A stretch of DNA of 64,000 nt from Mycoavidus sp. HKI (GTDB lineage Bacteria > Pseudomonadota > Gammaproteobacteria > Burkholderiales > Burkholderiaceae), in the NCBI RefSeq assembly GCF_020023735.2, contig NZ_CP076444.2, positions 1,627,501 through 1,691,500 on the forward strand. Direction: 5' to 3'. Position 1 is the stretch's first letter, and each line of letters starts with the position of its first letter. Made by a program: the position numbers and the translations under genes. The notes beneath the pieces are model-generated. The model saw only the letters and a list, made by a program, of their open reading frames with translations. It was not told the DNA's origin and did not search any database. This document shows, piece after piece, positions 46,201 through 63,130 of this stretch.

Positions 46201-49200
46201 AGTAAAATAGCGGGTGCAGCATCTGTCAGAATATGTGTCAGGCGCTCGCTCGAATACGCCGGATCGAGCGGCACATAAGCACCACCTGCCTTCAAGATCG
46301 CCAACAGTCCCACCACCAATGCCGGTGAGCGATCCATACAGATGGCTACACGTGTATCAGGCTGCACGCCCAATTTGATGAGCTGATGGGCAACGCGATT
46401 TGCCTGTGCGTTGAGTTCTGCGTAACTGAATTCTTGCTCTTCGTACACCAGCGCTATAGCCTCTGGCGTACGCTCAACTTGCTCTTCAAACAATTGGTGC
46501 ATGCATTGATGTGCTGGATAAGGCGTTACTACCGAATTCCATGTCTGCAACAGAAGCTCCCGTTCGTCAACAGGGAGCACTTCCAGTTGGTGAACTGGCA
46601 TCTTAGGCATACGTTCTAGCGCTTCAACTAGGCTTTGCAATGTCTGCTGCATATAGCCGCATATCTGCACCGGATCAAATGGGTGCACCACTTGAGCAGT
46701 TAAACCAAGGTCTGCGATGGAATCATCCACCGACAGCACAAATGGATAGTTGGTGCGCTCTTCTTCATGCAGCCATTCAATGCCTGGGAAAATTCGATTC
46801 TTGTCCCTCTCTGCCGTATTGTGTCGATAGTTTAATAACGCACTAAAAAGGGGCGTACCTGCTGGCACACTACTGCAGCGTTGTGCTAAGGCGAGCGACG
46901 CATGTTCATGTTCGAGTAAAGCGGCAAGCTGTGCGTGGGTATCACGTACACTGCTCTCAACATCCATTTGATCCAGGTCAATGCGCAACGGCAGCGTATT
47001 CATAAATAGCCCCAGTGCCCGATCCGCGCCACCTTGCATGCGGCCTAATAACACCGTACCGAATACCACCCGCTGTTGCCCACTGGTTCGCGCAAGCACC
47101 TGCGCCCAGGCTAAATGACATAAACTTGCCAAACCCACACTCAGTCGTTTAGCTTGGACACGCAGTCGATTATTCAGCTCCTGCGGCAGCATACGGCGGG
47201 ATTCGGTAACTTGAGAACCATCACGATGAACGCCGCTCAGGCCAAAAGGCAATGTAGGCTCATCCACCTCAGCCAGCATCTCTGTAAAAAAGTGCTCATG
47301 CGCCTCTTGGCTCGCTCCTAAGCGCGCCTGCGCCACCAAGTCGCGGAATGGCTGGGGAGGAGACAAGGCATCTTTTTGCTCCTTCATCAAAGTCCGCACT
47401 TCAGCATTCATTATCTCGGTGGCAGTATGATCTCCAATCAGATGGTGCATTAGCTGAACCAGCAACCAGCGCCCGTCATCATTTTGGGCAATCGCAAAGC
47501 GCAATAATGGCGCTTGCGTCAAATCCATCCGATACCGACGAGGATCAAAATGCTGCAGCAACTGCTGCGCAATGGGCCCATTCGCTGAATCCAAAGAAAG
47601 TGTTTCAATTGATAGCGGTGCATCACGCCGGACAATCTGAGCGGGTGTAGACAGCTGCTCCCAAACAAAAGCTGTGCGCAAAACATCATGGCGCTCCACT
47701 ACCTGTCGCACCGCATCCAGATAGCCATCAAGCAAGGTTCGACTATCAAACGCCAGTTGGTCAATGAGCAAATAAGGGTCGCCTTCTGTCACCGCTAAAT
47801 GATGGAATAAAATCCCCTCCTGTAAGGGAGACAGTGCATAAATATCTTGGATGTTGGACACGCCACCTGGTGTCTTTTCAACAATCCGATCAATATCAGT
47901 CTGACTGAGATCAATCAGTGGCAGCATCTCTGGCGTGATTTTGATGGCATCAGCTGTAATTAGGTTCGGCGGCACCATGACTTCCTGGTGTTGCCCTAAA
48001 GATCGAGCTAGCGTGCTCAATGTATGAGTACCAAATAAAGCATGTGCTGAGAGCGTTGAGCCAAGATGCCGCAAGCGTTCGATCATTTGCACCGCCAACA
48101 GCGAATGGCCACCGAGTGCGAAGAAGTTGTCGTGGCGGCCGATACGTTCGACTCTAAGCAACTCACTCCAAATTGCAGCGAGTGTATGCTCGGTTTCACC
48201 TTGTGGCGCTTCGTACGCCTGATGAGCAAAGGCTTTTTCATCTGGAGCAGGCAACGCTTTGCGATTGAGCTTACCGTTGGGCGTAAGCGGGAACGCCTCC
48301 AAATGCACAAAAGCAGCCGGTACCATATACTCAGGTAATCTCGCTGCGAGATGGGTGCGCAACGCTTGCGCTAGATGCTCATCTGGCTCGGCCACCACAT
48401 ACGCGACAAGACGCTTATCGTTCCCTTCCCCCAGTGCAAGCACCGCTGCTTCGCGTACCTGCGGATGTTCAACCAGGCGCACTTCGATTTCACCAAGCTC
48501 AATACGAAAACCGCGGATTTTGACTTGGAAGTCGTTACGACCCAGAAATTCCAGATTGCCATCGGGCAAGTAGCGAGCTAAGTCGCCCGTTTTATACAAA
48601 CGGGCATTTTTATCTTTGCTGAATGGATCTGCAATAAAACGTCTATCCGTAAGCTCAGGCTGATTTAAGTAACCCCGCGTAACACCCGCGCCACCAATGC
48701 ATATTTCCCCTACTGCGCCCAATGGCACAGGCTGGCCGTACTTATTCAGCAGATAAAACTGGATGTTCGCAAGTGGCCGACCAATCGAGACAGCTTCGCC
48801 ATTGAAATCACGTGGACAATGCCAAACGGTAGACCAGACCGTAGTCTCGGTTGGGCCATACACATTAAAAAGCATGCATTGGGGCGTAAGATTTTGCAAT
48901 AACCTTGGGCTGGGCGCTTCGCCACCTAAAAGCAATTTCAGCGGTAAGCTTAAGTGAGGCAGACCATGTCCATCCTGCAACAAGGCAGGTGGCAAGCTGG
49001 CATGTGTGATCGCATTTTTTTCCAAATATTCCCATAATTTGTAGCGATCAAGCCTCACGTTATCAGGTGGTAGATATAGACTTGCGCCATAAGCTAAAGT
49101 CATAATTTCTGAAACGCTGACATCAAAACTAATCGAGACAAACTGTAATACTCGACTGGTTGGCTGAATGTCTAAATAAGCCTGCTGTGCCTGCATAAAA

Positions 49201-51518
49201 TGGCTTACGCTCCGATGTTCGACCATCACTCCTTTAGGCGCACCAGTGGAACCGGAGGTATAGATCACATAGGCCAGATGACACGAGGTTAAGCCAGCAA
49301 CGTAGGGGTTAGTGGCCGGGAACAGTGGTTCTTGACTTGGATCAAGTACAGTCTGCCCAGCCAGTGCAGCTTCCCCCAAGGCGGCGCGTCCAGTCGCATC
49401 GGCAAGAAACAGCGTAGGCGCCACATCGGCCAAGATATACGTGAGGCGTTCACTCGGATATGTCGGGTCCAGTGGTACATAGACACCGCCTGCCTTGAGG
49501 ATAGCGAGTAAACCAATCAGTAATGCCGGTGAACGCTTCACACAGAGAGCAACCCGCACATCTGGTTGAACACCTAATTCGATGAGTTGATGGGCAAGGC
49601 GATTGGCCCGTGCATTCAGTTCTGCATAGCTAAATTTTTGATCTTCGTAAACAAGCACTATGGCTTCTGGCGTACGCGCAACTTGCGCTTCAAACAATTG
49701 GTGCATGCATTGGTGTGCTGGATAAGGCGTTGCTACCGAATTCCATGTCTGCAACAGAAGCTCTCGTTCGTCAACGGGGAGCACTTCCAGTTGGTGAACT
49801 GGCAGCTTAGGCTTATGCTCTAACGCTTCAACCAAACTTTGCAGCGCCTCTTGCATATAGCCACATACCCGAACCGACTCGATTGGTAGCGCCACCTGAG
49901 TAGTCAGACCAAGCCTCGTGCCAGAATCCTCTACTGATAGTGCAAATGGATAGTTGGTGCGCTCTTCTTTATGCAGCCATTCAATGCCTGGGAAAATTTG
50001 ATTCTGGTCACTCTCTACCGCCTTGTGTCGATAGTTTAATAACGCACTAAAAAGGGGCGTACCTGCTGGCACACTGCTGCAGCGTTGCGCTAAGGCAAGC
50101 GGCGCATGTTCATGTTCGAGTAAAGCGGCAAGCTGTGCGTGGGTATCACGTACACTGCTCTCAACATCCATTTGATCCAGGTCAATGCGCAACGGCAGCG
50201 TATTCATAAACAGCCCCAGCGCCCGATCTGCGCCACCTTGCATGCGGCCTAATAACACCGTACCGAATACCACCTGCTGTTGCCCACTGGTTCGCGCAAG
50301 CACCTGCGCCCAGGCTAAATGACATAAACTTGCCAAACTCACACTCAGTCGTTTAGCTTGGACACGCAGTCGATTATTCAGCTCCTGCGGCAGCATACGG
50401 CGGGATTCGGTAACTTGAGAACCATCACGATGAACGCCGCTCAGGCCAAAAGGCAATGTAGGCTCATCCACCTCAGCCAGCATCTCTGTAAAAAAGCGCT
50501 CATGCGCCTCTTGGCTCGCTCCTAAGCGCGCCTGCGCCACCAAGTCGCGGAATGGCTGGGGAGGAGACAAGGCATCTTTTTGTTCCTTCATCAAAGTCCG
50601 CACTTCAGCATTCATTATCTCGATGGCAGTATGATCTCCAATCAGATGGTGCATTAGCTGAACCAGCAACCAGCGCCCGTCATCATTTTGGGCAATCGCA
50701 AAGCGCAATAATGGCGCTTGCGTCAAATCTATCCGATACTGACGAGGATCAAAATGCTGCAGCAACTGCTGTGCAATCGGTCCATTCGCTGAATTCAAAG
50801 AAAGGGTTTCAATTGACAGCGGTGCATCACGCCAGACAACCTGAGCGGGTGTAGACAGCTGCTCCCAAACAAAAGCTGTGCGCAAAATATCATGTCGCTT
50901 CACTACCTGTTGCACCGCATCCAGATAACCATCAAGCAAGGCTCGACTGTCAAACGCCAGTTGGTCAATGAGCAAATAAGGGTCGCCTTCTGTCACCGCT
51001 AAATGATGGAATAAAATCCCCTCCTGTAATGGAGACAGCGCATAAATATCTTGGATGTTGGACACGCCACTTGGTGTCTTTTCAATAATCCGATCAATAT
51101 CAGTCTGACTGAGATCAATCAGTGGCAGCATCTCTGGCGTCAAAGTCGTGGTATCGGCCGTAATTAGATTTGGTGGAGTAGCGACTTCTCGATGCTGGCT
51201 TAGTGAGTGCGCTAAAGCTTTGAGCGTAGGGCTATCGGATTGGTAGGCTAGCAGCCGGTTTCGCCAGAACGTTTCGTGCAACGCCACCATCTCAAGTATT
51301 TCTCTGCTTTTAGGAGCTTGGCTGGTCATCTGCTCGGGTAGACATTTTCCGGGCTGAAGCTTAGCTTGAGAAGCTGGCGCCTTAGGATCTACTAAAGAGT
51401 TATCAAGAATCTCCAGTTCTTTGCATGAAGCTTCATTCGCATCATCCTGCTGCGCTTGAGTTTTATCCAGAGTTTGCTGATTTATAGGCAACTGACCAGT
51501 TACATTTCTAATGAACAT
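34227..51518 (-). CDS. Five-module nonribosomal peptide synthetase with terminal thioesterase
   Basis: 5763 residues organised as (C-A-T) x5 then TE, each module about 1080 residues. Module boundaries on the DNA are roughly 51518-48030, 48030-44790, 44790-41550, 41550-38310 and 38310-35060, with TE in 35000-34227. Every C domain has LSPLQ(E/D)GIL(F/L)HHL followed by four residues and GD, and the catalytic HHLIxD. Every A domain has YTSGSTGxPKGV, YGxTET, YxTGDL and NGKL(D/N)RKAL. Every T domain has DNFFALGGHSLLA with the phosphopantetheine serine. TE has GWSLGG near residue 5586. Hand-aligned ten-residue codes: A2 DVWNIAMVHK and A3 DFWNIGMVHK (threonine), A1 DVSSLGVVWK, A4 DTSEMGTVNK, A5 DVWIVTAAVK (not recognised). 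The first about 110 residues look like a remnant of a lost upstream domain. A strong ribosome site precedes the start. The product is unknown. Confidence 0.93.
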   Translation of the reverse strand: MFIRNVTGQLPINQQTLDKTQAQQDDANEASCKELEILDNSLVDPKAPASQAKLQPGKCLPEQMTSQAPKSREILEMVALHETFWRNRLLAYQSDSPTLKALAHSLSQHREVATPPNLITADTTTLTPEMLPLIDLSQTDIDRIIEKTPSGVSNIQDIYALSPLQEGILFHHLAVTEGDPYLLIDQLAFDSRALLDGYLDAVQQVVKRHDILRTAFVWEQLSTPAQVVWRDAPLSIETLSLNSANGPIAQQLLQHFDPRQYRIDLTQAPLLRFAIAQNDDGRWLLVQLMHHLIGDHTAIEIMNAEVRTLMKEQKDALSPPQPFRDLVAQARLGASQEAHERFFTEMLAEVDEPTLPFGLSGVHRDGSQVTESRRMLPQELNNRLRVQAKRLSVSLASLCHLAWAQVLARTSGQQQVVFGTVLLGRMQGGADRALGLFMNTLPLRIDLDQMDVESSVRDTHAQLAALLEHEHAPLALAQRCSSVPAGTPLFSALLNYRHKAVESDQNQIFPGIEWLHKEERTNYPFALSVEDSGTRLGLTTQVALPIESVRVCGYMQEALQSLVEALEHKPKLPVHQLEVLPVDERELLLQTWNSVATPYPAHQCMHQLFEAQVARTPEAIVLVYEDQKFSYAELNARANRLAHQLIELGVQPDVRVALCVKRSPALLIGLLAILKAGGVYVPLDPTYPSERLTYILADVAPTLFLADATGRAALGEAALAGQTVLDPSQEPLFPATNPYVAGLTSCHLAYVIYTSGSTGAPKGVMVEHRSVSHFMQAQQAYLDIQPTSRVLQFVSISFDVSVSEIMTLAYGASLYLPPDNVRLDRYKLWEYLEKNAITHASLPPALLQDGHGLPHLSLPLKLLLGGEAPSPRLLQNLTPQCMLFNVYGPTETTVWSTVWHCPRDFNGEAVSIGRPLANIQFYLLNKYGQPVPLGAVGEICIGGAGVTRGYLNQPELTDRRFIADPFSKDKNARLYKTGDLARYLPDGNLEFLGRNDFQVKIRGFRIELGEIEVRLVEHPQVREAAVLALGEGNDKRLVAYVVAEPDEHLAQALRTHLAARLPEYMVPAAFVHLEAFPLTPNGKLNRKALPAPDEKAFAHQAYEAPQGETEHTLAAIWSELLRVERIGRHDNFFALGGHSLLAVQMIERLRHLGSTLSAHALFGTHTLSTLARSLGQHQEVMVPPNLITADAIKITPEMLPLIDLSQTDIDRIVEKTPGGVSNIQDIYALSPLQEGILFHHLAVTEGDPYLLIDQLAFDSRTLLDGYLDAVRQVVERHDVLRTAFVWEQLSTPAQIVRRDAPLSIETLSLDSANGPIAQQLLQHFDPRRYRMDLTQAPLLRFAIAQNDDGRWLLVQLMHHLIGDHTATEIMNAEVRTLMKEQKDALSPPQPFRDLVAQARLGASQEAHEHFFTEMLAEVDEPTLPFGLSGVHRDGSQVTESRRMLPQELNNRLRVQAKRLSVGLASLCHLAWAQVLARTSGQQRVVFGTVLLGRMQGGADRALGLFMNTLPLRIDLDQMDVESSVRDTHAQLAALLEHEHASLALAQRCSSVPAGTPLFSALLNYRHNTAERDKNRIFPGIEWLHEEERTNYPFVLSVDDSIADLGLTAQVVHPFDPVQICGYMQQTLQSLVEALERMPKMPVHQLEVLPVDERELLLQTWNSVVTPYPAHQCMHQLFEEQVERTPEAIALVYEEQEFSYAELNAQANRVAHQLIKLGVQPDTRVAICMDRSPALVVGLLAILKAGGAYVPLDPAYSSERLTHILTDAAPAILLADTAGRAALGESELTSLTVLDPNSLPPLPSTNPKISTLSPHHLAYIIYTSGSTGLPKGVMVEHAQITRLFDATADWYQFNQHDVWCLFHSFAFDVSVWELWGALRHGGKLVIVPHHIARSPQDFYHLLCKQGVTVLNQTPSAFKPLIDCHAQSKLSDRLRYVIFAGEALEPAVLQTWYAVHAEHSPQLVNMYGTTETTVHATYRLMQQKDSHQIGSPVGKRIPDLKIYLLDANRQPVPLGAIGEIYIGGAGVARGYLNRPKLSAERFVADPFSKDKNARLYRTGDLARYLPDGELEFLGRNDFQVKIRGFRIELGEIEARLADHPQVREAAVLALGEGSDKRLVAYVVAKPNEHLAQALRTHLAARLPEYMVPAAFVRLEAFPLTPNGKLDRKALPAPDVEALARQTYEVPQGEIEQILAAIWTELLGVERISRHDNFFALGGHSLLAVQMIERLRRAGLTLSVRTLFDKPTLSILAQSLGQHQEIVVPPNLITRDTIALKPELLPLIQLTQTDIDGIVEQTPGGVSNIQDIYALSPLQDGILFHHLMATEGDPYLLLDQLAFASRALLDRYLDAVQQVVKRHDILRTAFVWEQLSTPAQVVWRDAPLSIETLSLDSANGPIAQQLLQHFDPRRYRMDLTQAPLLRFAIAQDDDGRWLLVQLMHHLIGDHSTLEVMGSEVQAWLKGQGSTLSPAQSFRNLIAQVRLGVSQEAHERFFREMLSEVDEPTLPFGLTEVHRDGSQITESYRMLPQDLNDRLRTQAKRLNVSLASLCHLAWAQVLARTSGQQQVVFGTVLFGRMQGGMGADQAMGLFINTLPLRIDLDETEVEESVGHVHARLAALLEHEHASLALAQRCSSVPAGTPLFSALLNYRHNAAERDKNQIFPGIEWLHEEERTNYPFVLSVDDSIADLGLTAQVVHPFDPVQICGYMQQTLQSLVEALERMPKVPVHQLEVLPVDERELLLQTWNSVVTPYPAHQCMHQLFEAQVERTPEAIALVYEEQEFSYAELNAQANRVAHQLIKLGVQPDTRVAICMDRSPALVVGLLAILKAGGAYVPLDPAYSSERLTHILTDAAPAILLADTVGRAALGESELASLTVLDPNSLPPLPSTNPKISTLSPHHLAYIIYTSGSTGLPKGVMVEHAQITRLFDATADWYQFNQHDVWCLFHSFAFDFSVWELWGALRHGGKLVIVPHHIARSPQDFYHLLCEQGVTVLNQTPSAFKPLIDCQAQSKLSDSLRYVIFGGEALEPTVLQMWYATRAEHSPQLVNMYGITETTVHVTYRPLQQKDSDQVGSPVGKRIPDLKIYLLDANRQLAPLGAVGELYIGGAGVARGYLNRPELTAQRFVADPFSKDKNARLYRTGDLARYLPDGNLEFLGRNDFQVKIRGFRIELGEIEARLADHPQVREAAVLALEEGNDKRLVAYVVAKPDEHLAQALRTHLAARLPEYMVPAAFVRLEAFPLTPNGKLDRKALPAPDVEALARQTYEVPQGEIEQMLAAIWTELLGVERISRHDNFFALGGHSLLAVQMIERLRRVGLTLSVRALFDTPTLSFLARSLRQHQEVAVPPNLITPDTTELTPDLLALIQLTQTDIDHIVEQTPGGVANIQDIYALSPLQDGILLHHLMATEGDPYLLITQMAFDSRALLDRYLDAVQQVVKRHDILRTAFIWEQLSTPAQVVWRDAPLSIEELSLDSANGPIPQQQLQYFDPRRYRMDLTQAPLLRFAIAQDDDGRWLLVQLLHHLIDDNSSMRILNAEVQALLKGQGSTLPPAQSFRNLIAQVRLGVSQEAHERFFREMLGEVDEPTLPFGLAEVHREGSQVTESYRMLPQELNDRLRMQAKRLNVSLASLCHLAWAQVLARTSGQQQVVFGTVLFGRMQGGMGVDQAMGLFINTLPMRIDLDETEVEESVRHVHARLAALLEHEHASLALAQRCSSVPAGTPLFSALLNYRYNAVPSDTTQLMPGIEELHAEDWDSYSLSLSVDDYGQSLGLTAQIAQPFNPERLCGYMQKALESLAETLERAPKMPVRQLEIVPNAEQALLLQTWNATAAPYPKDQCLHQLFEAQVERTPNAIALAHENLTISYAELNAQANRLAHHLIDIGVRPDSRVALYIQPSIDMVMGLLAVLKAGGAYVPLDTKYPAERLADMVNDSVPVALLSIGAPHTVVAQGLGEKAPVLDLRADMAHWKDKSSHNPSPHKLGLNAEHLAYVMYTSGSTGKPKGVMIQHQGVVSLAITMIQQTDLSPQDRVLQFSSLSFDTSVSDIFATLTCGATLVLRTDAWLADTQEFWRLCEANQISVMELPTQFWAQLAQEKAPVPQKIRLMMIGGDALSASAHQAWFVNTGHRPRLLNTYGPTETTVNATIREVSADGNDWRAIGRPITNTRVYVLDSSMQPTPLGVAGELYIGGAGVARGYLNRPDLTAERFLSDPFSDQTDAWMYRTGDLVRYLPDGNLEFLGRNDYQVKIRGFRIELGEIEARLTEHPQVREAVVAALGEGSNKRLVAYVVAKPDEHLVQSLRTHIAVALPEYMVPAAFVRLETFPLMPNGKLDRKALPAPDVEALARQTYEVPQGEVEQMLAAIWTKLLDVERISRHDNFFALGGHSLLAVQMIERLRRAGLTLSVRTLFDKPTLSILAQSLGQHQEIVVPPNLITRDTIALKPELLPLIQLTQTDIDGIVEQTPGGVSNIQDIYALSPLQDGILFHHLMATEGDPYLLLDQLAFASRALLDRYLDAVQQVVKRHDILRTAFVWEQLSTPAQVVWRDAPLSIETLSLDSANGPIAQQLLQHFDPRRYRMDLTQAPLLRFAIAQDDDGRWLLVESSHHLISDHSTGDVMDAEVRAFVENQSDALPAAQPFRNLVAQARLGVSQEAHERFFREMLGEVDEPTLPFGLTEVHRDGSQVTESHRMLPQELNNRLRMQAKRLNVSLASLCHLAWAQVLARTSGQQRVVFSTVLFGRMRGGEGADQAMGLFINTLPLRIDLDETGVEESVRHVHARLAALLEHEHASLALAQRCSNVPAGTPLFSAMLNYRHNMMSVDENQTMSGVERLYGEERTNYPFLLSIEDFSTKLGLTAQVAQPFDPAQVCGYMQEALLSLVNALEYTPKIPVHQLEVLPVEERKLLLQTWNATETSYPAHQCIHQLFEEQVERTPESVALVYGDQQFSYAELNAQANRLAYQLIECGVQPDTRVALCAERSPAIVVGLLATLKAGGVYVPLDPVYPSERLAHILAHAAPKILLADRVGRTALGEEALAPLIVLDPNELPKLSTANPHIPELTSRHLIYVLYTSGSTGKPKGVTMEHRSIVNLAQASVASFGVHPSSRVLQFASISFDVSIWEMLVALSCGASLYLPPETIRHDRDKLWDYLAGQAITHVILPPALLQGGEILPSLSTPLTMVLTGEAPSATLLQNLSRQGTVFNAYGPTETHAVTVWPAASSALDHGVLSIGRPIANTRLYVLDARGQPVPLGAVGELYIGGVGVARGYLDQLELTAERFLRDPFSEYEDARMYKTGDLVRYLPDGNLVFLGRNDHQIKIRGFRIEPGEIEACLAEHPLVQEAVVLAMGEGNDKRLVAYVVAEPDEQSVQSLRAHLAANLPEYMVPAAFVRLDAFPLTSNGKLDRKALPAPDAEALARQVYEVPQGEFEYTLATIWSELLGVERIGRHDNFFALGGHSLLAMQMAGRIRSKLGVEITLRTTFEAPTIAGLAQRLLGSDGVLDNKDGILNNSFDVLLPLQPKGSRSPLFCIHSGVGVSWEYIGLSQYLGEEQPIYGLQARGLDGMSRFAETIDEMAADYIKQIRQIQPSGPYSLLGWSLGGMVAHSMATQLEQQGERVALLAIWDAYPSLSGEEWEKPQDLTASRAAYMETFEIYDDKKIPNASEYLWEKIQRCTVNANKIVKNFSPRIYSGDMLFFHATIKDSLYAPLHPDMWKPYICGEIKVHNINCNHSEMGEPKAIAEISRPLADKLNQLQKSQLPQNKEEILDIE
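37745..38400 (-). repeat. Near-identical module segment (T4/C5), partner of 44230-44884
   Basis: About 655 bp covering the end of carrier domain 4 and the first part of condensation domain 5 match 44230-44884 (T2/C3) almost base for base. The protein is identical over more than 200 residues. Outside this tract the two modules diverge normally, which indicates recent intragenic recombination. Confidence 0.85.
44230..44884 (-). repeat. Near-identical module segment (T2/C3), partner of 37745-38400
   Basis: See the preceding entry. The right-hand end of the tract lies in the conserved DNFFALGGHS coding region. The left-hand end falls just before the HHLI(G/S)DH catalytic motif, where C3 and C5 become different. 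Confidence 0.85.
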
Positions 51519-53537: not shown

Positions 53538-53737
53538 TTTGATCATTCTCCAGAATTTCCTAGTATTATTTTTATAAACATGCAAGGTGTCCCTATAATG
53601 CTAAAGAAATTTTCTATTTGTTCTTACACTAAAAATTGTCAGTGCATTTTTGCGCATCTGACCAAACCCTGATCGGCTTTAATCCATTCTGGCTATTTTC
53701 ATCAAACGTTTCATTATGCTACCGCAGGAGCATTCTA

Positions 53738-54973
53738 ATGAATAACACGATCAATCAAATCGACGAGCCGACATTACCTATCCAATACCCTTTCCCTTTG
53801 GGTAAAAATGGAACACCACCACTGGTTATCCATTGGGCACGCGAACATCGCCCTGTTTGTCCAATTCGTTTACCCAGCGGCAGGGACGCATGGATGCTCA
53901 CCCGCAAAGATGATATAGAAAGAGTATTAAGTGATTCCAGCTTTTCACGAGACCTTACTTTTGCGGGAGCGCCACGCATGGCCGGTGAAGATATCACCAA
54001 AATCCCTGGCGGGCTTTTTAACCTTGATCCCCCTGATCATAGCCGAGTTCGCCAGGTACTCAAACGCTTTTATACACCAGCTGGTACTGAGCGGCATCGC
54101 CCTTTAGTGGAGCAACACGCCAAACGATTGCTCGATGCGATGGAGCAGGGACCCAAGCCGACTGATTTAGTGGAAGCTTATTTGGGGGCGCTACCATTGC
54201 AGGCAAGTGTGGACATCCTTCACATACCCGTTGAACACCAAAAAACTTACTTGCAATACTTCCAAGCTCAGACAGGTTTATCCACTGATCTTATGGCGAC
54301 TCCAGAAGATATCAGCATTGCTACTGACAAAATTAAAGAATTTGCTGAGGCCATCATCGAAACTAGGCGCTTAACCGACAATTCTAACGTTGATGATTCG
54401 ACTGGCGCTCTCATTAGTGCTCGAAAAGAGGGCGTGATTAGTGAAGCAGAATTAGTCGGCACCATCTGCTATCTGCTTATTACGGGCTCTGACTCACTGG
54501 TTGCTCCAATGAGCACCGGCACTTTGACTTTAATGCTAAACCGCGAGCAAGTACTTGAATGCCTCAAGAACCCTGCGCTGTGGCCCAAGGCAGTGGAAGA
54601 GGTGATACGCTATCACCACAATAGTGTGCTGGGTCTGCCTAGAGTTGCTTTAGAAGACATCACTATGCACGATGTAGTTATTCGTAAAAACGATGCTGTT
54701 TGTCTACCAATGCTCGGAGCCACATGGGACCCCAAACATTATCCGGAACCCCATAAATTTGACATTCACCGCACCACAAATGCTTCGATTACCTTCGGTC
54801 ACGGCGTCCATTTCTGTTTAGGTGCTTCGTTAGCGCGGATGTTCTTGCAGGTTGCTTTTTCTGCGTTGTTTACGCGTTTTCCAGATTTGTCTCTTGCTAT
54901 TCCAGAGCGAGAGATCCCGTGGGACGATGCGACGATGTTTATCAAGCCACGTAGTCTACCGGTCTCCTGGTAA
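53738..54973 (+). CDS. Cytochrome P450 (soluble bacterial class I)
   Basis: A 411-residue haem monooxygenase from the ATG at 53738, preceded by GCAGGAG; the longer frame to 53636 is unlikely. The I-helix oxygen-activation segment is LLITGSDSLVAPM, with serine in place of the usual threonine. The K-helix ExxR is EEVIRYHHN. The haem loop is FGHGVHFCLGASLARM with the cysteine ligand near residue 360. No membrane anchor. It resembles actinobacterial-type P450s of biosynthetic clusters. It ends 190 bp before the FkbH-type NRPS gene on the same strand and probably hydroxylates that peptide or its building block. A redox partner is not encoded nearby. Confidence 0.92.
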   Translation: MNNTINQIDEPTLPIQYPFPLGKNGTPPLVIHWAREHRPVCPIRLPSGRDAWMLTRKDDIERVLSDSSFSRDLTFAGAPRMAGEDITKIPGGLFNLDPPDHSRVRQVLKRFYTPAGTERHRPLVEQHAKRLLDAMEQGPKPTDLVEAYLGALPLQASVDILHIPVEHQKTYLQYFQAQTGLSTDLMATPEDISIATDKIKEFAEAIIETRRLTDNSNVDDSTGALISARKEGVISEAELVGTICYLLITGSDSLVAPMSTGTLTLMLNREQVLECLKNPALWPKAVEEVIRYHHNSVLGLPRVALEDITMHDVVIRKNDAVCLPMLGATWDPKHYPEPHKFDIHRTTNASITFGHGVHFCLGASLARMFLQVAFSALFTRFPDLSLAIPEREIPWDDATMFIKPRSLPVSW

Positions 54974-55165: not shown

Positions 55166-58100
55166 ATGTTGGTGACGTCTATGTTTACAGCTGATTATTT
55201 GCGCGCTCCGCTGCGACATCTGCTAGATATATTTTCACCAGATACGCCTTTAGAAATCAGCTATGGCGATGTTATACCTAAACTGGCCGCTTTAAAAACG
55301 GGTTTGCAAGCACTGCCAGATACCTTGATCGTCCTCGTTAGAATCAAAGATTTGGTTGCATCTATAGAAGAAGGGGCCGTATTACAAGTTAACCTTGATG
55401 CGTTTGCCAATATTCTCTATGAGGTTAAAAGCAATACTTTGCCCATCATCGTTGCGCTATGTCCTAGCTACTATGAAAGTCCTCTGCAACAAAGCAAAGC
55501 ACTGCAAGCCGAGCAGAAGCTCGCCGATCAACTTAAAGAGCACTGTAGCGCATTCATCACTTTGGAGGATATTCAGCAGCATTACTTTACGCTAACAGAT
55601 ATCCAAGATCCCATTAACGAAATCCCTTATCACATACCGTATCAGCCACAATTTTATGTAGGACTGGCTTGCCTGCTGGCGAGACGCTATCATTTCATTA
55701 AAACCAAACCTCATAAAGTCATCGCGGTGGATTGCGACGATACCCTATGGACGGGTACGGCTGCTTCTGTCGGGATAGAGGGTATACGCTTTGAGTCTCA
55801 TAACTTAGCCTTACAATCCCACCTAGTTGAACAATACAAGGCCGGTGTGCTCATCTGCTTGGTTAGTCAAAATGACCCTGAAATCATCTTTCAGGTGTTT
55901 GAAAATCGCCAAAAAGAAATGGTGCTCAACCGCTCCCACATTGCAGCGTACAAAATTAACTATGGGCTTAAATCCGATAATTTAGAGATGCTTGCTCAGG
56001 AATTTGAGAACATGGAGCTGGGCCGGTTTATCTTTATTGATGATTCTGCCCAAGAATGTGCGCAAATCAAATATGCACTGCCCATGGTTTCAGTTATCCA
56101 AATGCCGCAGCAGTTACCGGAATTCGAAAAATTATTCCAACATGTTTGGGCGCTGGACCGTGGCAAGGCGACTGAAGCAGATCAACAACGTACTCAGTTT
56201 TATCAAAATAATGCTATCAGAGATCAGTTACTGACTCAATCTAAGAGCCACCATCAAAGCTATTCGCAATTTATTCAAACACTTAACTTAAGCAGCGTCA
56301 TTGAACCTGCAACGACGTCCAAACACTATGACAGAATTGCCCAATTAACGGAGAACTGCACCCAATTCAACTTGACGGGGCACGTCAAGATATCCGCAAG
56401 CAGCATTAAAACCTATTTGTCAAAACCTCTGGCTCGAGGTTGGATGATGGAGGTTGAAGATAAATTTGGCAAATATGGCCTCGTTTGCGCAGCGATAGGC
56501 CAGTTCGCCCAAAATATATTTATCTGTGAAGAATTTTTTGTAAGCTGTCGTGGTTTTAAGAAGGAGCTTGAATATAAATTTATCCAACATATTGCTCATG
56601 AGGTTTCATCTCGAGCGAATATTTTTCAGTTACCTTTCCAAGCCACAGAAAGGAATATTCCTGCAAAAAAATTTCTGGATATATTATTTGAAGCAGCAGG
56701 TATAGAGACAGATGAACAGAATTTCATTTTCAATGTACTCGCATTAACCAAAATTAATCCTGCCGCATTAACAGAGCAGGCGATTGCACAAACACACTCT
56801 GCTAAGGTAAATCATTCTATCAATGGATATAAGAAAGCAGACTATGCACAGCTGGCTGATTGGACATCTACGCTTGAACCTCTCTTAGACCAATATTTTA
56901 TTGGCAAAGAAGTGCTGTCTGATATTTCAAAAATAGACCTCGAAGAAGGTATTCATTACCTCTGTAAAAAATTATTGTCATTGGATCAGATGAAACCTGA
57001 GGCGGCTTTGATTTTTCAGGGATTAAACTCCCTGAAAGCAACACAACTCGCTTACTTTTTATATCAGCAATACAAAATAAAGCTTGCTATATCCTTTTTG
57101 TTGAGCGAGCAGCTGACTGTGCAATCACTGGTTCAGACACTTAGGCGGCAAGCTAACATTAACTTATCAGATGTGGCTACAGTACCTGAAATAAGCGGGG
57201 CTATTATTCCTGCTTCTTTTCAGCAAAGAAGACTGTGGCTGAATGAGCAAAATCATGCAGAGCGCTCCTTTGATAACCACATGGTGATTCCTTTTGTAAG
57301 TTCACCTTTTAACATTGAACCTTTACAACAAGCCTGTCAAATTTTGCTCAATCGGCATGAAGTGTTTAGAACGGGGTTGAGTGCCTCTAGCCAACATATT
57401 GTATCGCAACATATCTTCCCCTCCGACCAGGTTAAATTGGATTTTGAGATATTGACTTTGGAAAAATCTGCTGATCTTGGCACGATTATTCGCAAAGTTG
57501 CACGCGAACCTTTCGCTCTTGAAATACCGCCTTTGATTCGTTTTAAAGTGCTTAAAACAGATTCGCATTATTACTTTGCAATCTGTGCTCACCATATTAT
57601 TTTTGATGCGCTGTCCTTAAATATCATCGTTAATGAATTATCTGAATTTTTGCGTCCGTTTGCATGCCAGTCATCAGCAGCACTCGATCCCTCCCCTACC
57701 CAATACAGTCATTTGGTTGCTGAGCAGCAGCAAAAATATGGTGAAAGGTACCAAACAGAAGCATTAGACTACTGGCTCAAACAATTAGAGAACACAGAAG
57801 TTGCTCAATTTCCCCCTGATAACGCGCTGGAAACATCTCTCACCTCTTTAAGCGCGCGTCATGAATTTACTATACCGAAAGATCTGCATATCAAATTAGT
57901 TCATGCAGCCTGTACTATGGGAGTGACGGTCAACAGTTTGATGTTTTCTGCCTATAGCTTCTTAGTAGGAACGTACGCCAATCAAAATCATTTTGTTATT
58001 CTGACAGCCGCATCTGGCAGAGAAGAAGACCCTTCTTTTCAAAATACGGTAGGATTTTTTATTAATTTAATGCCTTTAGCCGTGCATCTGAAAGAAGACA

Positions 58101-58718
58101 TGAGTTTCATTGAGTATGTTAAAACCAACCAAACTGCTCTTTTGAGAAGCTTGAAATATCAACAAATTCTCTTTGAGAAATTGCAGCAGCAGCTTCAGCA
58201 AAACGGCATCTCGTCTCCTCTGAAAAATCCTGCATTTATTTATCAAAACTACCCCATGGCCACTCTGACGCTGGGTGACGAGGTAGCAAGTTTAGTCCCG
58301 CCAATATCTTCTACTCTATATGACTTACGAGAAACCACTCGCTTTGGAGACTTCACCTTGTTTGTTCGGGAGACCCCCGACAGCCTTTTAGGCATGATTG
58401 AATATGCAAAGGCGAGTTACTCCACAAAACTGATTTCTCAAATTACACGGAATTTTCTCTATCTCTTGGAAGGGATTTGCCAAGAGCCCATGAAAAAAAT
58501 CCACCATATGACTTGTATTTGCGAAAAACAAAAAAAATATTTATTTAACTTAAGGCAAATACCAAGTTCCAGTGACGATAATCGAGGCTTGATCGCCCTT
58601 TTTCGGGAACGGGTTATCAAACAAGGTGATCAGCCAGCAGTTTGTCATGGTGAACGTACATTGAGCTACTACGAGCTTAACCAACAATCTGACTCCTTGG
58701 CGCTCACTCTGCTAGAGC
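55166..58718 (+). pseudogene. IS-split NRPS, 5' part: FkbH-like loader, carrier, condensation, start of adenylation
   Basis: Domain order by residue: N-terminal FkbH region 1-170; HAD phosphatase-like domain from about 180 with VIAVDCDDTLWTG and FIFIDDSAQECAQI; acyltransferase-like domain about 380-530 with QLTENCTQFNLTG. Carrier domain near 617 (FQGLNSLKATQ); C domain about 690-1115 with HHIIFDALS at about 808; start of the A domain to 1184. FkbH-type proteins make a glyceryl thioester from 1,3-bisphosphoglycerate on a carrier protein, so the first unit is probably glycerate-derived. The frame is cut by the IS at 58719 and ends in it at 58741. With 60141-62519 it forms one 1976-residue gene. 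Confidence 0.9.
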
Positions 58719-60132
58719 CATGTCCTTACACACAACTATAAACAGCCAAGTACAATAAACCTTTAAAAGAAAGAGATGACAGGCAGAGATGAGCTGGGCA
58801 GCGAAAGAATTTAAGACAGTAGATTTAGGTGACAAGCGGTTAAACAAGAGGCTGATGTTGCTTGCAGAGCGTCTTGGGGAAAAGCCGACGGCGAGTCTGC
58901 CTGGGGCATGTAAAGGGTGGGCGGAAACCCAGGGGGCGTATCGATTTTTATCTCAAGAGGATATAGGTTGGGAGTCTATTTTAGAGCCGCACTGGTCCTG
59001 TTCGCGTGCGCGCTTACAAGAGCAGCGTACCGTTTTGTGCATCCAAGACACCACGGAACTGAACTTCAACGGACAATCGATAGAAGGCTTGGGTCCCCTG
59101 TGTTACGAAGCGCAACGAGGTATGTACCTGCACCCGACGTATGCGGTATCGTTGGAGCGTGAACCGTTAGGCGTATTAGATGCGTGGATGTGGGCACGTG
59201 CATCCAAAGAAGACGTAGAGAATCGGTCTGGGATCAAGGAAAGTATACGCTGGATCGAAGGGTATAGCCGACTGGCAGAACTCTCAGCCGAGTTACCCGA
59301 GACACGTTTGGTGTATATGGCAGACCGTGAATCCGACATGCTAGAACTGATATGCAAAGCCTCCGAACTGGGGAATCCGGTGGATTGGTTAATTCGCTCG
59401 TGTCACAACCGGGTGCTACCAGATGGTGCTCGCCTGTGGGAGGCAGTCGGTGCGCAGGCAGCGGTAGGCGAATTGCATTTTATGATGCCCTCACGGCATG
59501 GCCAAAAGGCTCGAGCGGTACGTCAGCAAGTCAGAATGAAACGCGTTGTCCTTGATGATAGAAAGGGCTCCCCGTTAGAAGTGACCTGCGTAATAGCCCA
59601 AGAAGTGGAGGTACCGTCTGGCTGTAAGCCTGTGGAGTGGCGCTTGCTCACTAATCGCGTGGTACTTGATTTCGACGCAGCAGTGGAGTTGATTGACTGG
59701 TATCGGGCTCGCTGGGAGATTGAGATGTTCTTCCACGTTCTCAAAAACGGCTGTCGCGTCGAGGCGCTGCAACTAGGGGCTATCGAAAAGTTAGAGAGGG
59801 CGCTGGCGGTCTATATGGTGGTGGCTTGGCGAATCGCTCGCTTGATGAGACTAGGCCGTACTTGCCCTGATCTGGAAGCAGAACTGCTGTTTGAGCCAGA
59901 GGAATGGCAAGCCGCGTATCTTCTCATGAAAAAACCTGTGCCAAAAAAGACGCCTCGACTCAATGAAGTAGTGCGGCTTATTGCGATGTTGGGTGGATTC
60001 TTAGGCCGAAAAGGGGATGGCGAGCCCGGCGTAAAAACCATCTGGCAAGGATTACAGCAGGTTACTGCCTTTGCTCAGGGTCTACGCTGGGCGCGCCAAA
60101 ACCAGATATTTTGAGTTGTGTATAAGGATATG
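58719..60132 (+). mobile_element. IS50/Tn5-like insertion sequence, copy 2
   Basis: 1414 bp, same ends, orientation, length and encoded transposase as the copy at 4923-6336. It is flanked by a perfect 9-bp duplication TGCTAGAGC at 58710-58718 and 60133-60141. Each copy has its own target repeat, so they are independent insertions, not the arms of a composite transposon. Confidence 0.95.
58789..60114 (+). CDS. IS50/Tn5-like transposase, second copy
   Basis: Residue-for-residue the same 441-residue protein as at 4993-6318, with the DDE residues in CIQDTTELNF, YMADRESDM and WYRARWEIEMFF. The identity argues that the two insertions are recent and that the element is active in this genome. Confidence 0.93.
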   Translation: MSWAAKEFKTVDLGDKRLNKRLMLLAERLGEKPTASLPGACKGWAETQGAYRFLSQEDIGWESILEPHWSCSRARLQEQRTVLCIQDTTELNFNGQSIEGLGPLCYEAQRGMYLHPTYAVSLEREPLGVLDAWMWARASKEDVENRSGIKESIRWIEGYSRLAELSAELPETRLVYMADRESDMLELICKASELGNPVDWLIRSCHNRVLPDGARLWEAVGAQAAVGELHFMMPSRHGQKARAVRQQVRMKRVVLDDRKGSPLEVTCVIAQEVEVPSGCKPVEWRLLTNRVVLDFDAAVELIDWYRARWEIEMFFHVLKNGCRVEALQLGAIEKLERALAVYMVVAWRIARLMRLGRTCPDLEAELLFEPEEWQAAYLLMKKPVPKKTPRLNEVVRLIAMLGGFLGRKGDGEPGVKTIWQGLQQVTAFAQGLRWARQNQIF

Positions 60133-62519
60133 TGCTAGAGCAAGGGATTCAAGAAAATGATTTGGTCGGCATCTATGCCGGCAGAAGTCTGGAATTTGTG
60201 GTTGCAATTCTGGCTATTCTTAAAGCGGGCGCAGCCTATGTGCCCATTCCATCGGATTATCCAACTGAACGTCAAAAATATATTATTGAGGATGCTAGGC
60301 TGCGCGTTTTACTCCACGACAAACCTGACCTAATCGCACCTGATTCTTTTAGAGTTACTTTGCTCAATATCCAGAAGGCTATTCACTTCCCTTCTTTGGA
60401 CTGCACTTTTCCTGAAACAACAGCCAGTCACCTAGCCTACCTGATGTATACCTCTGGTTCGACTGGAGCGCCCAAAGGGATAGAAATTAGACAGCAAGGG
60501 ATTATGCGTTTAGTTGTGGCGCCCAATTACATTGAATTTGGTCCTAAAGATAGCATCGCTTTTGCCTCCAACCCGGCGTTTGATGCAGCCACCTTTGAGA
60601 TTTTTGGCGCACTTTTAAACGGGGCGCGTTTAGTCGTTTTCGACAAAAACGAAATATCGGATATGGATCGGTTGGAACAGAAGCTTATTGAGGAACGTAT
60701 CACCATTCTATGGTTAACGGCTGGTTTATTTCACCATTACGCCAACAATCGACCTTCATTGTTTAGACAACTAAACTACTTATTAGCAGGCGGTGATGTA
60801 CTCAATCCGAGAGCGATTGAAAGAATCTTTGATTGTTCGCAAGGCCGTCCAAAACATATCCTCAACGGCTATGGACCTACAGAAAATACGACCTTTACTA
60901 CCGTGTACGAGATTACCGATAAACAAGCTCTTCAGAATAAATCATGGGTGCCGATAGGCAAACCCATTAACAATACAAGCTGCTATATCCTAGGTAAGTG
61001 GGGGCAACAGGTTCCTTTAGGGGCGAAAGGAGAATTGTATATCGGCGGTAAAGGTTTAGGCTGTTATCGTCATCCGGCGTTGCAAGTACAACGTTTTGTC
61101 ACGGTCTCATCAGTGACCCCCGATCTGCTTTATAAAACGGAAGATATAGTCAGATATGATTTGGACGGTAATATAGTTTATTTAGGTCGTGCAGATGACC
61201 AAATCAAGATCTCGGGCAATCTTGTTGTTTTAAGCGAAATTGAACACCATCTTATCTCTCATGAAATGGTAAAAGAGGCCGTCGTATTGGCCAAACCTCA
61301 AGCAGATAATAATAAACAACTGATTGTTTTTTATCAGGCTAAAAAATCTGGAAAGCTACCTACTGCGGAGAGTTTGCGCTTTTATTTAAGTCAACGGCTA
61401 CCTGCTTTTATGGTGCCAGCGTTTTACATTCTGCTTGATGCATTTCCTCTTAACCATAATGGAAAAGTAGACAAAAAGGCATTGCTGAAAAAAGAAATTT
61501 CCTCCCCAGCTGAAAATAAAGAAGTGGAAGTTCCTCTTACTTCTATGCAGAATCAAATTATTGCTGCCTGCCGTAGCGTTCATTCTAACATTCACTCTAT
61601 TGAACTAAATCGTACTCTCGATTTTCAAGGCTTTCACTCTCTCGACCGTATGTCTCTACGAGCTATCATTCAGCAACAATTTCCGCAGTTTAATTTTCCG
61701 CCAGCTGCATTTAACGCCAGCGTAACACCACAAGATATAGTTGATTTGATATCCGAGAGCGCGCTTGGCTGTCCCCCACCCTACTCCCCACTCCGCAAAC
61801 TAAAATCAGGGGATGAGGCTCATCCTCCGTTTGTGTTTATCCACCCAGCTAGTGGTTTTTTATTTCCTTATGAAAAATTAATCCAAGCATTGATCTCAAA
61901 TCGTACCTGCTTTGGCATTGAAGACCCAGCCCTTTCAAATCATGGGAAAATTCAAAATAGCATTCAAAATATAGCGCGCACATATCTTGAATATATTCAA
62001 AAACAGATTAAAGATCCGATTATTTTAATAGGTTATTCATTTGGCGGTATGTTATCGCTGGAGATAGCATATCAAGCAGAAATGCAAGACACTAACAACA
62101 TACGAGGCGTTTTGCTGCTAGATACTTGGATTGTTTCAAATCTAAAAAATGATGGTGTGCGAGAACAGATCAAGCAAGGTGTATTTGAACTTTATAAAGA
62201 GATTGAGCAAGAATTCCTGAAGCAGGAGCAGGTGAGTACAGACATATTGAAGCGCCTTGCACCTCGCTATAAGCAGTTACAAGAACTTGGCTTTGCCTTT
62301 AAGCCCAAGCCTTTGTCTAGAACCCCTGTGGTTTTATTCAAAGCTAGCGAATCAAAGAAGCTGTTTTCTGGCATGCACGATGAAAATAATTATTTATCCA
62401 CGGTTGTACCCAAAACCTTATTAACCAAATACAGCGTACCCGGCGAGCATATGACATTGCTGGAGAATGAAGAAAGCATAGCCGCTATTGTGCGACTTAT
62501 AGAAACATTAGAGATTTGA
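60133..62519 (+). pseudogene. IS-split NRPS, 3' part: adenylation (valine type), carrier, thioesterase
   Basis: Continues the reading frame of 55166-58718 with QGIQENDLVGIYAGRSLEFV. The A domain has LMYTSGSTGAPKGIEI, YGPTENTTF and NGKVDKKAL. The hand-aligned specificity code is DAFWLGGTFK, the known valine code. The carrier domain near restored residue 1679 has the serine in FQGFHSLDRM. A TE follows with HPASGFLFPYEKL and GYSFGGMLSLE. The last bases of the IS supply AAGG and a GTG at 60132, giving a possible separate 795-residue frame that lacks the first part of the A domain. That product would probably not activate its amino acid, although the carrier and TE domains are whole. Confidence 0.9.
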
Positions 62520-62522
62520 AGC

Positions 62523-62616
62523 TGACTGCTTTTCGCGGACACTTTTAAACTACCGAAAAGGAGTTCGTAATGCGTCAATCCAAAGCGCCGTATCCAGCGG
62601 CATTTCGTCAACAAAT
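62523..62616 (+). mobile_element. Left end of an IS3-like element
   Basis: Begins TGACTGCTTTTCGCGGACAC and continues through a ribosome site (AAAAGGAG) to an ATG at 62570 followed by MRQSKAPYPAAFRQQI. That peptide is the start of an IS3-type OrfA. After 16 codons the sequence changes to an IS5-type transposase. The same terminus, inverted, stands alone at 9298-9326. Confidence 0.65.
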
Positions 62617-63117
62617 CAAGGATAAAGACAAACTCTATGCTCTGCATGCCCCGGAAGTGGAATGCAGAGCCAAGGGCAAGGCACGTAAGCCCTACGAATT
62701 CGGTGTAAAAGTGTCGATCACGACGACTCACCAGGAAGGGCTAGTGGTTGGTGCGCGCTCGATGCCAGGCAATCCTTACGACAGTCATACGCTGGCCGAA
62801 GCGCTAGAACAGGCAGCGATCCTGAGTGATGTGACTCCAGAGGTTGCCATCGTTGATCGCGGTTACAAAGGGATCGCAATCGAGGGTGTAAAATCTATCA
62901 CTCTGGCATACGTCGGGGTATTACCCGTACGCTAAGCGCGATAATCAAGCGACGCAGTGCCATTGAGCCCACTATTGGTCATATGAAAGCGGATGGGAAA
63001 CTTGATCGAAATTGGCTCAAAGGGGCGTTAGGTCATGTTATACACGCCTTAGATCAAATAGTACGCAAAACGATTTATTCAGGACCGACTTTTAAAATTC
63101 GGAAATTTTATTTTTAA
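62570..63117 (+). pseudogene. Chimeric, frameshifted IS5-family transposase remnant
   Basis: After the IS3-type start the frame reads KDKLYALHAPEVECRAKGKA, KPYEFGVKVS and GNPYDSHTLAEALEQA, the DDE domain of IS5-family transposases with VAIVDRGYKG. Near 62888 one base appears to be missing: the expected continuation IYHSGIRRGITRTLSAIIKR then RSAIEPTIGHMKADGKLDRN lies in the next frame and runs to 63117. Both ends of the original transposase are gone. It is a junction of two element remnants and is non-functional. Confidence 0.8.
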
Positions 63118-63130
63118 TGAAACAAGATTT

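What the first reader, a model, noticed from the sequence alone, without database searches (positions are those of the whole stretch)
55166..62519. FkbH-T-C-A-T-TE synthetase disrupted by an IS inside its adenylation domain
The two parts join in one frame of 1976 residues when the 1414-bp element and one copy of TGCTAGAGC are removed. The architecture predicts a glycerate-derived starter joined to valine and released by a TE, with a P450 upstream. I know no characterised product from this exact layout. Because the break is so clean, the ancestral gene can be reconstructed exactly, and sister strains may still carry it intact.
Basis: partly seen in the sequence, partly recalled or inferred. Interest (0 to 1): 0.78.

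Follow-up and report, generated by a model that had tools for sequence, protein, structure and literature searches.

The report
Transposon-broken glycerate-loading peptide synthetase
A gene for a small peptide-making enzyme, in a bacterium that is probably a fungal endosymbiont, has been cut in two by a jumping gene; intact relatives in Rickettsiella- and Legionella-like bacteria sit beside a sensor gene, which hints that this family may make chemical signals.

Summary
ORF1 (55166-58741) and ORF2 (60132-62519) are halves of one FkbH-T-C-A-T-TE synthetase, split by a 1414-bp IS50-like element with a perfect 9-bp target duplication. I did not rejoin the gene. Aligned separately to 14 intact homologues, the pieces meet at one family residue with a 3-residue overlap in 14 of 14. 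The catalytic residues checked are kept; the break lies in the adenylation domain. Its code reads DAFWLGGTFK, valine-like (reference code recalled).

The layout is not unique. It is intact in 9 of 16 genomes of the order of Ca. Aquirickettsiella and in at least 5 of 143 of the order of an uncultured Legionella. In four domain trees the window gene is sister to the Rickettsiella-side rows, which suggests horizontal acquisition. The two congeners held lack it.

In those relatives a hybrid histidine kinase follows: 30-37 bp downstream in 9 of 9 measured loci, adjacent in 5 of 5 on the Legionella side. A related formyl-type synthetase reads in one frame with such a kinase. This suggests synthase/sensor pairs. 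The window has no such kinase. Product and function are untested.

The parts
53636..54973 (+). cytochrome P450, 445 aa (TTG start as listed; an ATG lies inside)
   Evidence: PF00067 97 bits; PDB P450s at E about 1e-61; same strand, 192 bp upstream of ORF1. A phmmer probe with it matched nothing in the related loci scanned.
55166..58718 (+). 5' piece of the synthetase: FkbH (with its N-terminal part), T1, C, start of the A domain
   Evidence: TIGR01686 above cut-off, PF00668; 33/31/31 % identity to L037/L094/L114; catalytic residues checked are kept
58710..58718 (.). left copy of the 9-bp target duplication TGCTAGAGC
58719..60132 (+). IS50-like IS4-family insertion element, 1414 bp
   Evidence: Dimer_Tnp_Tn5 and Tnp_DNA_bind; NF033590 IS4 transposase 381 bits; 9 full copies in own genome; 8 of 8 copies looked at have a 9-bp duplication
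58789..60114 (+). transposase gene of the element, 441 aa
60133..60141 (.). right copy of the target duplication
60132..62519 (+). 3' piece of the synthetase: rest of the A domain, T2, TE
   Evidence: PF00501 from profile position 38, PF13193, PF00550, PF00975; 38/35/36 % identity to L037/L094/L114; code DAFWLGGTFK
62570..62935 (+). fragment of another transposase (IS5/IS1182-like) directly downstream, where relatives have a kinase gene
   Evidence: parts of the stretch recur elsewhere in the own genome

Best explanation
This is a recently inactivated member of a family of one-module synthetases, FkbH-T-C-A-T-TE, whose other members found here lie in Rickettsiella- and Legionella-like bacteria. 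In the intact enzyme the FkbH part should load a glyceryl unit from 1,3-bisphosphoglycerate onto T1, A should load valine or a similar branched amino acid onto T2, C should join them by an amide bond, and TE should release N-glyceroyl-valine or its six-membered lactone (a morpholinedione). The upstream P450 may oxidise the product. An IS50-like element then jumped into the A domain, leaving ORF1 without a working A domain and ORF2 without the start of one, so no product is expected from this copy. Shown: the break, the layout, family membership by four domain trees, kept catalytic residues, and adjacency of family members elsewhere to a hybrid kinase. Inferred: substrates, product, loss of function, horizontal acquisition, and a role of the family in signalling.
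For: Break and duplication. Domains. The two pieces together span 14 intact homologues with a 3-residue overlap, the length of the duplication, in 14 of 14. HAD residues D189/D191/S234/K269/D292, T1 Ser622, C HHxxxD, T2 Ser503 and TE Ser636/Asp664/His773 are the same in the window and in 14 of 14 (residue roles recalled). Trees: the window groups with 10-11 Rickettsiella-side rows at SH-aLRT 99 (FkbH), 100 (C), 95 (A), 99 (TE); the five Legionella-side rows come in next in the FkbH, C and A trees (97-99; in FkbH and C together with one further row). Code DAFWLGGTFK against DAFWIGGTFK for Val (recalled). FkbH domains load glyceryl units in cystomanamide and vioprolide NRPSs (PMC8949500, passages).
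Against: The GVCGE stretch after the HAD nucleophile in most FkbH rows compared reads GTAAS in the window and GVAGD, GVAAE, GIAGD in three Rickettsiella-side homologues, so the loaded acid may not be glycerate. T1 is not recognised by Pfam. For the core of FkbH and for A, the best phmmer scores include rows outside the family; membership there rests on the trees. The identical A code also occurs in a cyanobacterial row (L070). The Legionella-side codes differ (F in place of W at the fourth position), so one common product is not assured. Identity is low: 31-38 % over the pieces to three members, at most 45 % for a single domain. ORF2 has a GTG with an AGGA-like site at the element's edge, so a split protein may be made. 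Only one assembly of the strain was seen.
Confidence: 0.7

Rival explanations
1. The family's product is a signal sensed by the adjacent PAS hybrid kinase (as in synthase/sensor pairs such as RpfF-RpfC or CqsA-CqsS, recalled); the window carries a captured synthase that has lost, or never had, its sensor.
For: Kinase downstream of the synthetase, 30-37 bp apart, in 9 of 9 intact loci of one order, and adjacent in 5 of 5 intact loci of the other. At the same kinase/dnaE-like neighbourhood of G441 the NRPS is of another type (its start is cut by the contig end) while a kinase stays. A formyl-type NRPS and its kinase overlap in Legionella lytica and a similar pair reads as one 2188-aa frame in G439.
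Against: No such kinase was found in the window (phmmer); the only own-genome match at E <= 1e-10 is a distant 836-aa kinase elsewhere (28 %). Neighbouring kinases may regulate the NRPS without sensing its product. G443 keeps an intact kinase frame beside a broken synthetase. Adjacency was not scored against random gene pairs.
Confidence: 0.35
2. The gene still works as two proteins: ORF1 (FkbH-T-C) and ORF2 (truncated A-T-TE, started by the GTG at the element's right end).
For: ORF2's GTG starts at the last base of the element, with AAGGA 3 bp before it; both frames are open; no terminator-like site was found in 58650-60250.
Against: The A domain is cut inside its N-terminal subdomain: Pfam AMP-binding begins at profile position 38 in ORF2, and about 40 residues of its start lie in ORF1. 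The one promoter-like site found on the + strand lies at the element's left end (58727-58756), none near its right end.
Confidence: 0.1
3. The split is an assembly or single-cell artefact and most of the population has the gene intact.
For: The element is present in 9 full copies in the genome, and repeats can mislead assembly.
Against: Perfect duplication, matching frames and a one-contig assembly; 8 of 8 copies looked at have distinct, clean duplications.
Confidence: 0.07

Closest known systems
FkbH-containing NRPSs (vioprolide, cystomanamide; PMC8949500, passages seen)
   Same: An FkbH domain stands in place of an A domain and feeds a T domain.
   Different: In vioprolide the FkbH module is the second and follows a fatty-acyl-loading module. 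Here FkbH is at the N-terminus of a self-contained one-module enzyme with its own TE.
FkbH-T-C-A-T-TE synthetases of Aquirickettsiella, Rickettsiella and Legionella-like genomes (found here; no name seen in print)
   Same: Same domain order; lengths of 1970-2127 aa; sister to the Rickettsiella side in four domain trees; C motif HHxxxDA as in 9 of 9 Rickettsiella-side members, where the Legionella side has HHxxxDG.
   Different: There the gene is intact and next to a PAS hybrid kinase. In the window it is IS-broken, has a P450 upstream, and no such kinase was found.
IS50/Tn5-type elements of the IS4 family
   Same: Tn5 DNA-binding and dimerisation domains, 9-bp duplication, about 19-bp ends.
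   Different: A single-transposase element of 1414 bp. No element name was sought.
Synthase/hybrid-kinase pairs RpfF-RpfC, CqsA-CqsS (recalled)
   Same: A small-molecule synthase beside a hybrid kinase.
   Different: The synthase here is an NRPS. Sensing is not shown.

Membership tests
FkbH-T-C-A-T-TE family of Rickettsiella/Legionella relatives | same domain order over about 2000 residues | tested here: met
   The pieces together span 14 of 14 intact members with a 3-residue overlap
FkbH-T-C-A-T-TE family of Rickettsiella/Legionella relatives | common descent of each domain | tested here: met
   Trees of FkbH, C, A and TE, SH-aLRT 95-100 (quick trees without bootstrap, unrooted, outgroups picked by similarity to the window; T domains not tested)
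FkbH-T-C-A-T-TE family of Rickettsiella/Legionella relatives | adjacent PAS hybrid histidine kinase | tested here: not met
   None found in the window; one distant kinase elsewhere in the genome. A trait of context, not of the enzyme.
FkbH glyceryltransferase/phosphatase domain | TIGR01686 above its cut-off; HAD aspartates; SCR cysteine | tested here: met
   181.2 against 146.65 bits; D189, D191, D292, C461
FkbH glyceryltransferase/phosphatase domain | loads glyceryl from 1,3-bisphosphoglycerate | not testable with these tools
   biochemistry needed
FkbH glyceryltransferase/phosphatase domain | GVCGE-like stretch after the HAD nucleophile (3 of the 4 other rows; the fourth reads GICAE). Whether it defines the family is not known to me. 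| tested here: not met
   GTAAS in the window; GVAGD, GVAAE, GIAGD in three homologues
Valine-activating A domain | 10-residue code close to DAFWIGGTFK (recalled) | tested here: met
   DAFWLGGTFK by motif register; GrsA numbering recalled
IS4 family, IS50 group | Tn5-type transposase domains, 9-bp duplication, terminal repeats | tested here: met

The most novel reading that the evidence does not exclude
One-module NRPSs with varied starters (glyceryl, formyl) and their neighbouring PAS hybrid kinases form an undescribed class of synthase/sensor signalling pairs in Legionella- and Rickettsiella-like intracellular bacteria. The probable fungal endosymbiont of the window captured a synthase without its sensor and has just lost it to an IS.
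Probability: 0.3. Interest if true: 0.8.

Novelty: new variant of a known kind. Interest (0 to 1): 0.55.

Why it matters
The window gene itself is most likely a dead copy. It led to a conserved enzyme family, for which I saw no name in print, kept in small genomes of host-bound bacteria, each of the 14 intact copies examined lying next to a sensor kinase. That makes a concrete question testable: does a minimal NRPS make the ligand of the kinase beside it? It also suggests gene traffic between Rickettsiella-like bacteria and a probable fungal endosymbiont.

Tried and rejected
Unique layout: rejected, since intact homologues exist. Cyanobacterial origin: summed multi-domain scores first favoured Planktothrix, but the trees do not. 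Intact copies in congeners: none of 2. Viral contigs: 8 stretches matched a pattern, none was confirmed. Plasmids: 641 records match ORF1 and 2434 match ORF2, every best place under 60 % identity; I looked into three of them (Niallia, Streptomyces, Legionella lytica) and none has this layout; the rest were not inspected. Own order: 16 of 399 genomes have an FkbH match, the own one included. Of the 15 others I inspected three (G011, G181, G309), which have other layouts, and the 12 not inspected have frames of 575-862 aa, too short for this layout. Kinase in the window: none by phmmer at E 1e-6. In one search a TE clade test that included the G442 variant was rejected (p-AU 0.0146); G442 also falls outside in the C tree and was left out of the Rickettsiella-side group. 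The first FkbH tree held only 4 Rickettsiella-side rows, because others fell below the coverage or rank cut; one search held 11. The rows include two broken relatives (G443, G438) and one cut by a contig end (G433).

Limits. In one search at most 4 candidates per genome were scored, so 5 of 143 is a lower bound; G814, with an FkbH match in a 2152-aa frame, was not inspected. Literature (open-licence PMC only): no listed title, and no passage that I saw, described this family or NRPS-kinase pairs in the searches. Passages were read in PMC6016236, PMC9997750 and PMC13220807, and named no such gene. Searches looked for the host genus. One of ten searches was not used. No structure prediction was run.
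Full report
WHERE IT LIES. The window is bases 1627501-1691500 of a one-contig genome of 2,254,889 bp. The genus held has three genomes, of about 1.9, 2.25 and 2.8 Mb. No call names the organism. A review says that 12 % of the Ca. Mycoavidus necroximicus genome is biosynthetic clusters and that only necroximes and symbiosin are known products (PMC12306442, passages).

THE BREAK. ORF1 (55166-58741) runs into the element; the GTG of ORF2 (60132-62519) starts at its last base. The element, 58719-60132, has Tn5-type transposase domains, about 19-bp ends matching at 17 of 19 positions, and TGCTAGAGC on both sides. Nine full-length copies sit in the genome, seven of them identical. Eight of the nine were at hand, and 8 of 8 have a perfect 9-bp duplication, so the element has probably moved recently. 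The two frames are compatible: (60132-55166) and 1423 both leave 1 modulo 3. I did not rejoin the gene. Instead each piece was aligned alone to 14 intact homologues. In 14 of 14, the end of the ORF1 piece and the start of the ORF2 piece fall on the same place with a 3-residue overlap, the length of the duplication.

WHAT THE PIECES ARE. ORF1: FkbH (TIGR01686, 181.2 bits against a cut-off of 146.65) and Condensation. ORF2: AMP-binding from profile position 38, AMP-binding_C, PP-binding (21.4 against 20.8) and Thioesterase. T1 is not called by Pfam; its serine (S622) aligns in 14 of 14. The HAD residues checked, C HHxxxD, both T serines and the TE triad are the same in the window and in 14 of 14 (roles recalled). 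The A code is DAFWLGGTFK. It was read by motif register, and the GrsA numbering and the valine reference code are recalled. Intact relatives read mostly DALW[MIL]GGIFK on the Rickettsiella side (three of nine differ at one or two more places) and DA[FL]F[VLA]GGTFK on the Legionella side. A broken relative (G438) and a cyanobacterial row outside the family (L070) have the window's code exactly. A P450 lies 192 bp upstream on the same strand. ORF1 and ORF2 have GC3 of 0.40 and 0.38 against 0.49 for the large NRPS at 34227-51518; three Rickettsiella-side homologues have 0.20-0.26. This is weak support for foreign origin.

THE FAMILY. Within the stretches held, three of the 80 have the full layout in one frame: Ca. 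Aquirickettsiella gammari (L037), an uncultured gammaproteobacterium (L094) and an uncultured Rickettsiella (L114). A fourth, an uncultured Legionella MAG (L043), has it in pieces. In the order of L037's genome (Diplorickettsiales, name recalled; 'Rickettsiella side' here), 14 of 16 genomes match the FkbH-T-C profile at E <= 1e-30, and 9 of 16 carry a single frame of 2067-2127 aa over the profile. The other five are cut by a contig end (G433), broken (G438, G443), variant (G442, with a methyltransferase inside the A domain) or matched by another NRPS whose start is cut by the contig end (G441); two of 16 have no match. In the order of the Legionella MAG ('Legionella side'), 39 of 143 genomes match at 1e-60, mostly through condensation domains. 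Five of 143 show FkbH and C matches in one frame of 1970-1999 aa, and phmmer finds FkbH, C, A and TE in each of the five. This is a lower bound, since at most four candidates per genome were scored. The two congeners of the window's genome have no match to ORF1 at 1e-20.

DESCENT. Separate quick trees of FkbH, C, A and TE put the window sister to the 10-11 Rickettsiella-side rows (SH-aLRT 99, 100, 95, 99). The five Legionella-side rows come in next in the FkbH, C and A trees (97-99), in FkbH and C together with one further row. The trees are unrooted, without bootstrap, outgroups were chosen by similarity to the window, and the window branch is long, so exact placement is less sure than membership. 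For the FkbH core and for A, some of the best pairwise scores lie outside the family. The variant G442 falls outside in the C and TE trees. A place between two gammaproteobacterial groups points to horizontal transfer into the window's lineage; the donor is not known.

THE KINASE NEXT DOOR. In nine intact loci on the Rickettsiella side, the gene 30-37 bp downstream matches one kinase along its length. Pfam, run on two of these nine (L037, L146), gives PAS-HisKA-HATPase-REC-Hpt. In six of the nine the order upstream gene, synthetase, kinase, downstream gene is seen complete (L143-L148; I read the outer genes as an NAD-glutamate dehydrogenase and dnaE by recall). In L094 the upstream gene is cut, and in L037 and L114 the contig ends on that side. 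The kinase also adjoins the broken or variant synthetases of G443, G438 and G442 and, in G433, follows the rest of the synthetase on the next contig. Beside the same downstream gene in G441 the NRPS is another type but a kinase remains. All five Legionella-side loci have an adjacent kinase by phmmer; in one (L192) that frame is short, 443 aa, with a weak core match. A Legionella lytica plasmid carries a formyltransferase-C-A-T-TE NRPS overlapping such a kinase by 8 bp, and in G439 a similar pair reads as one 2188-aa frame, in which Pfam called no C domain. One indel could make that fusion. In G429 and G442 a second NRPS stands head-to-head with a kinase. These facts suggest synthase/sensor pairs but do not show sensing; a kinase that only regulates the NRPS fits too, and adjacency was not scored against chance. 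In the window no such kinase was found, and the one own-genome match is distant (28 %). A transposase fragment starts 50 bp after ORF2, where a lost neighbour could have been.

HOW IT LIKELY WORKED. FkbH domains in NRPSs take over loading by placing a dephosphorylated glyceryl unit on T (PMC8949500, passages). Here FkbH is first, so glyceryl would be the starter; C joins it to valine on T2; TE releases N-glyceroyl-valine or cyclises it through the 2-hydroxyl. Substrate and release are inference. The changed stretch after the HAD nucleophile is the best reason to doubt glycerate.

VERDICT. The gene itself is most likely a recent pseudogene. The family, with its kinase neighbours, is the part of interest.

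Noticed in passing
L177:3557-10120 (G439): One 2188-aa frame joins formyltransferase, A, T and TE domains of an NRPS to PAS-PAS-HisKA-HATPase-REC-Hpt: possibly a natural synthase-sensor fusion, or an indel at an overlap.
   Followed up: partly
L178 (G442), L179 (G429): A second NRPS (2504 and 2531 aa) stands head-to-head with a PAS hybrid kinase (822 and 815 aa) in both genomes.
   Followed up: partly
L175:7156-13738 (Legionella lytica plasmid): A formyltransferase-C-A-T-TE NRPS overlaps a PAS hybrid kinase gene by 8 bp.
   Followed up: partly
L151 and L180 (G438), L149 (G443): Decay of family members: synthetase frames broken in several places, in G438 at two loci.
   Followed up: partly
window 4923-6336: A second full copy of the same IS, with target duplication AATTTAACT.
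   Followed up: partly
window 62520-63130: A transposase fragment and flanking sequence whose parts recur at several places in the own genome.
   Followed up: no
window 34227-51518 (-): A 5763-aa NRPS with five A domains and a terminal TE match; product not sought.
   Followed up: no
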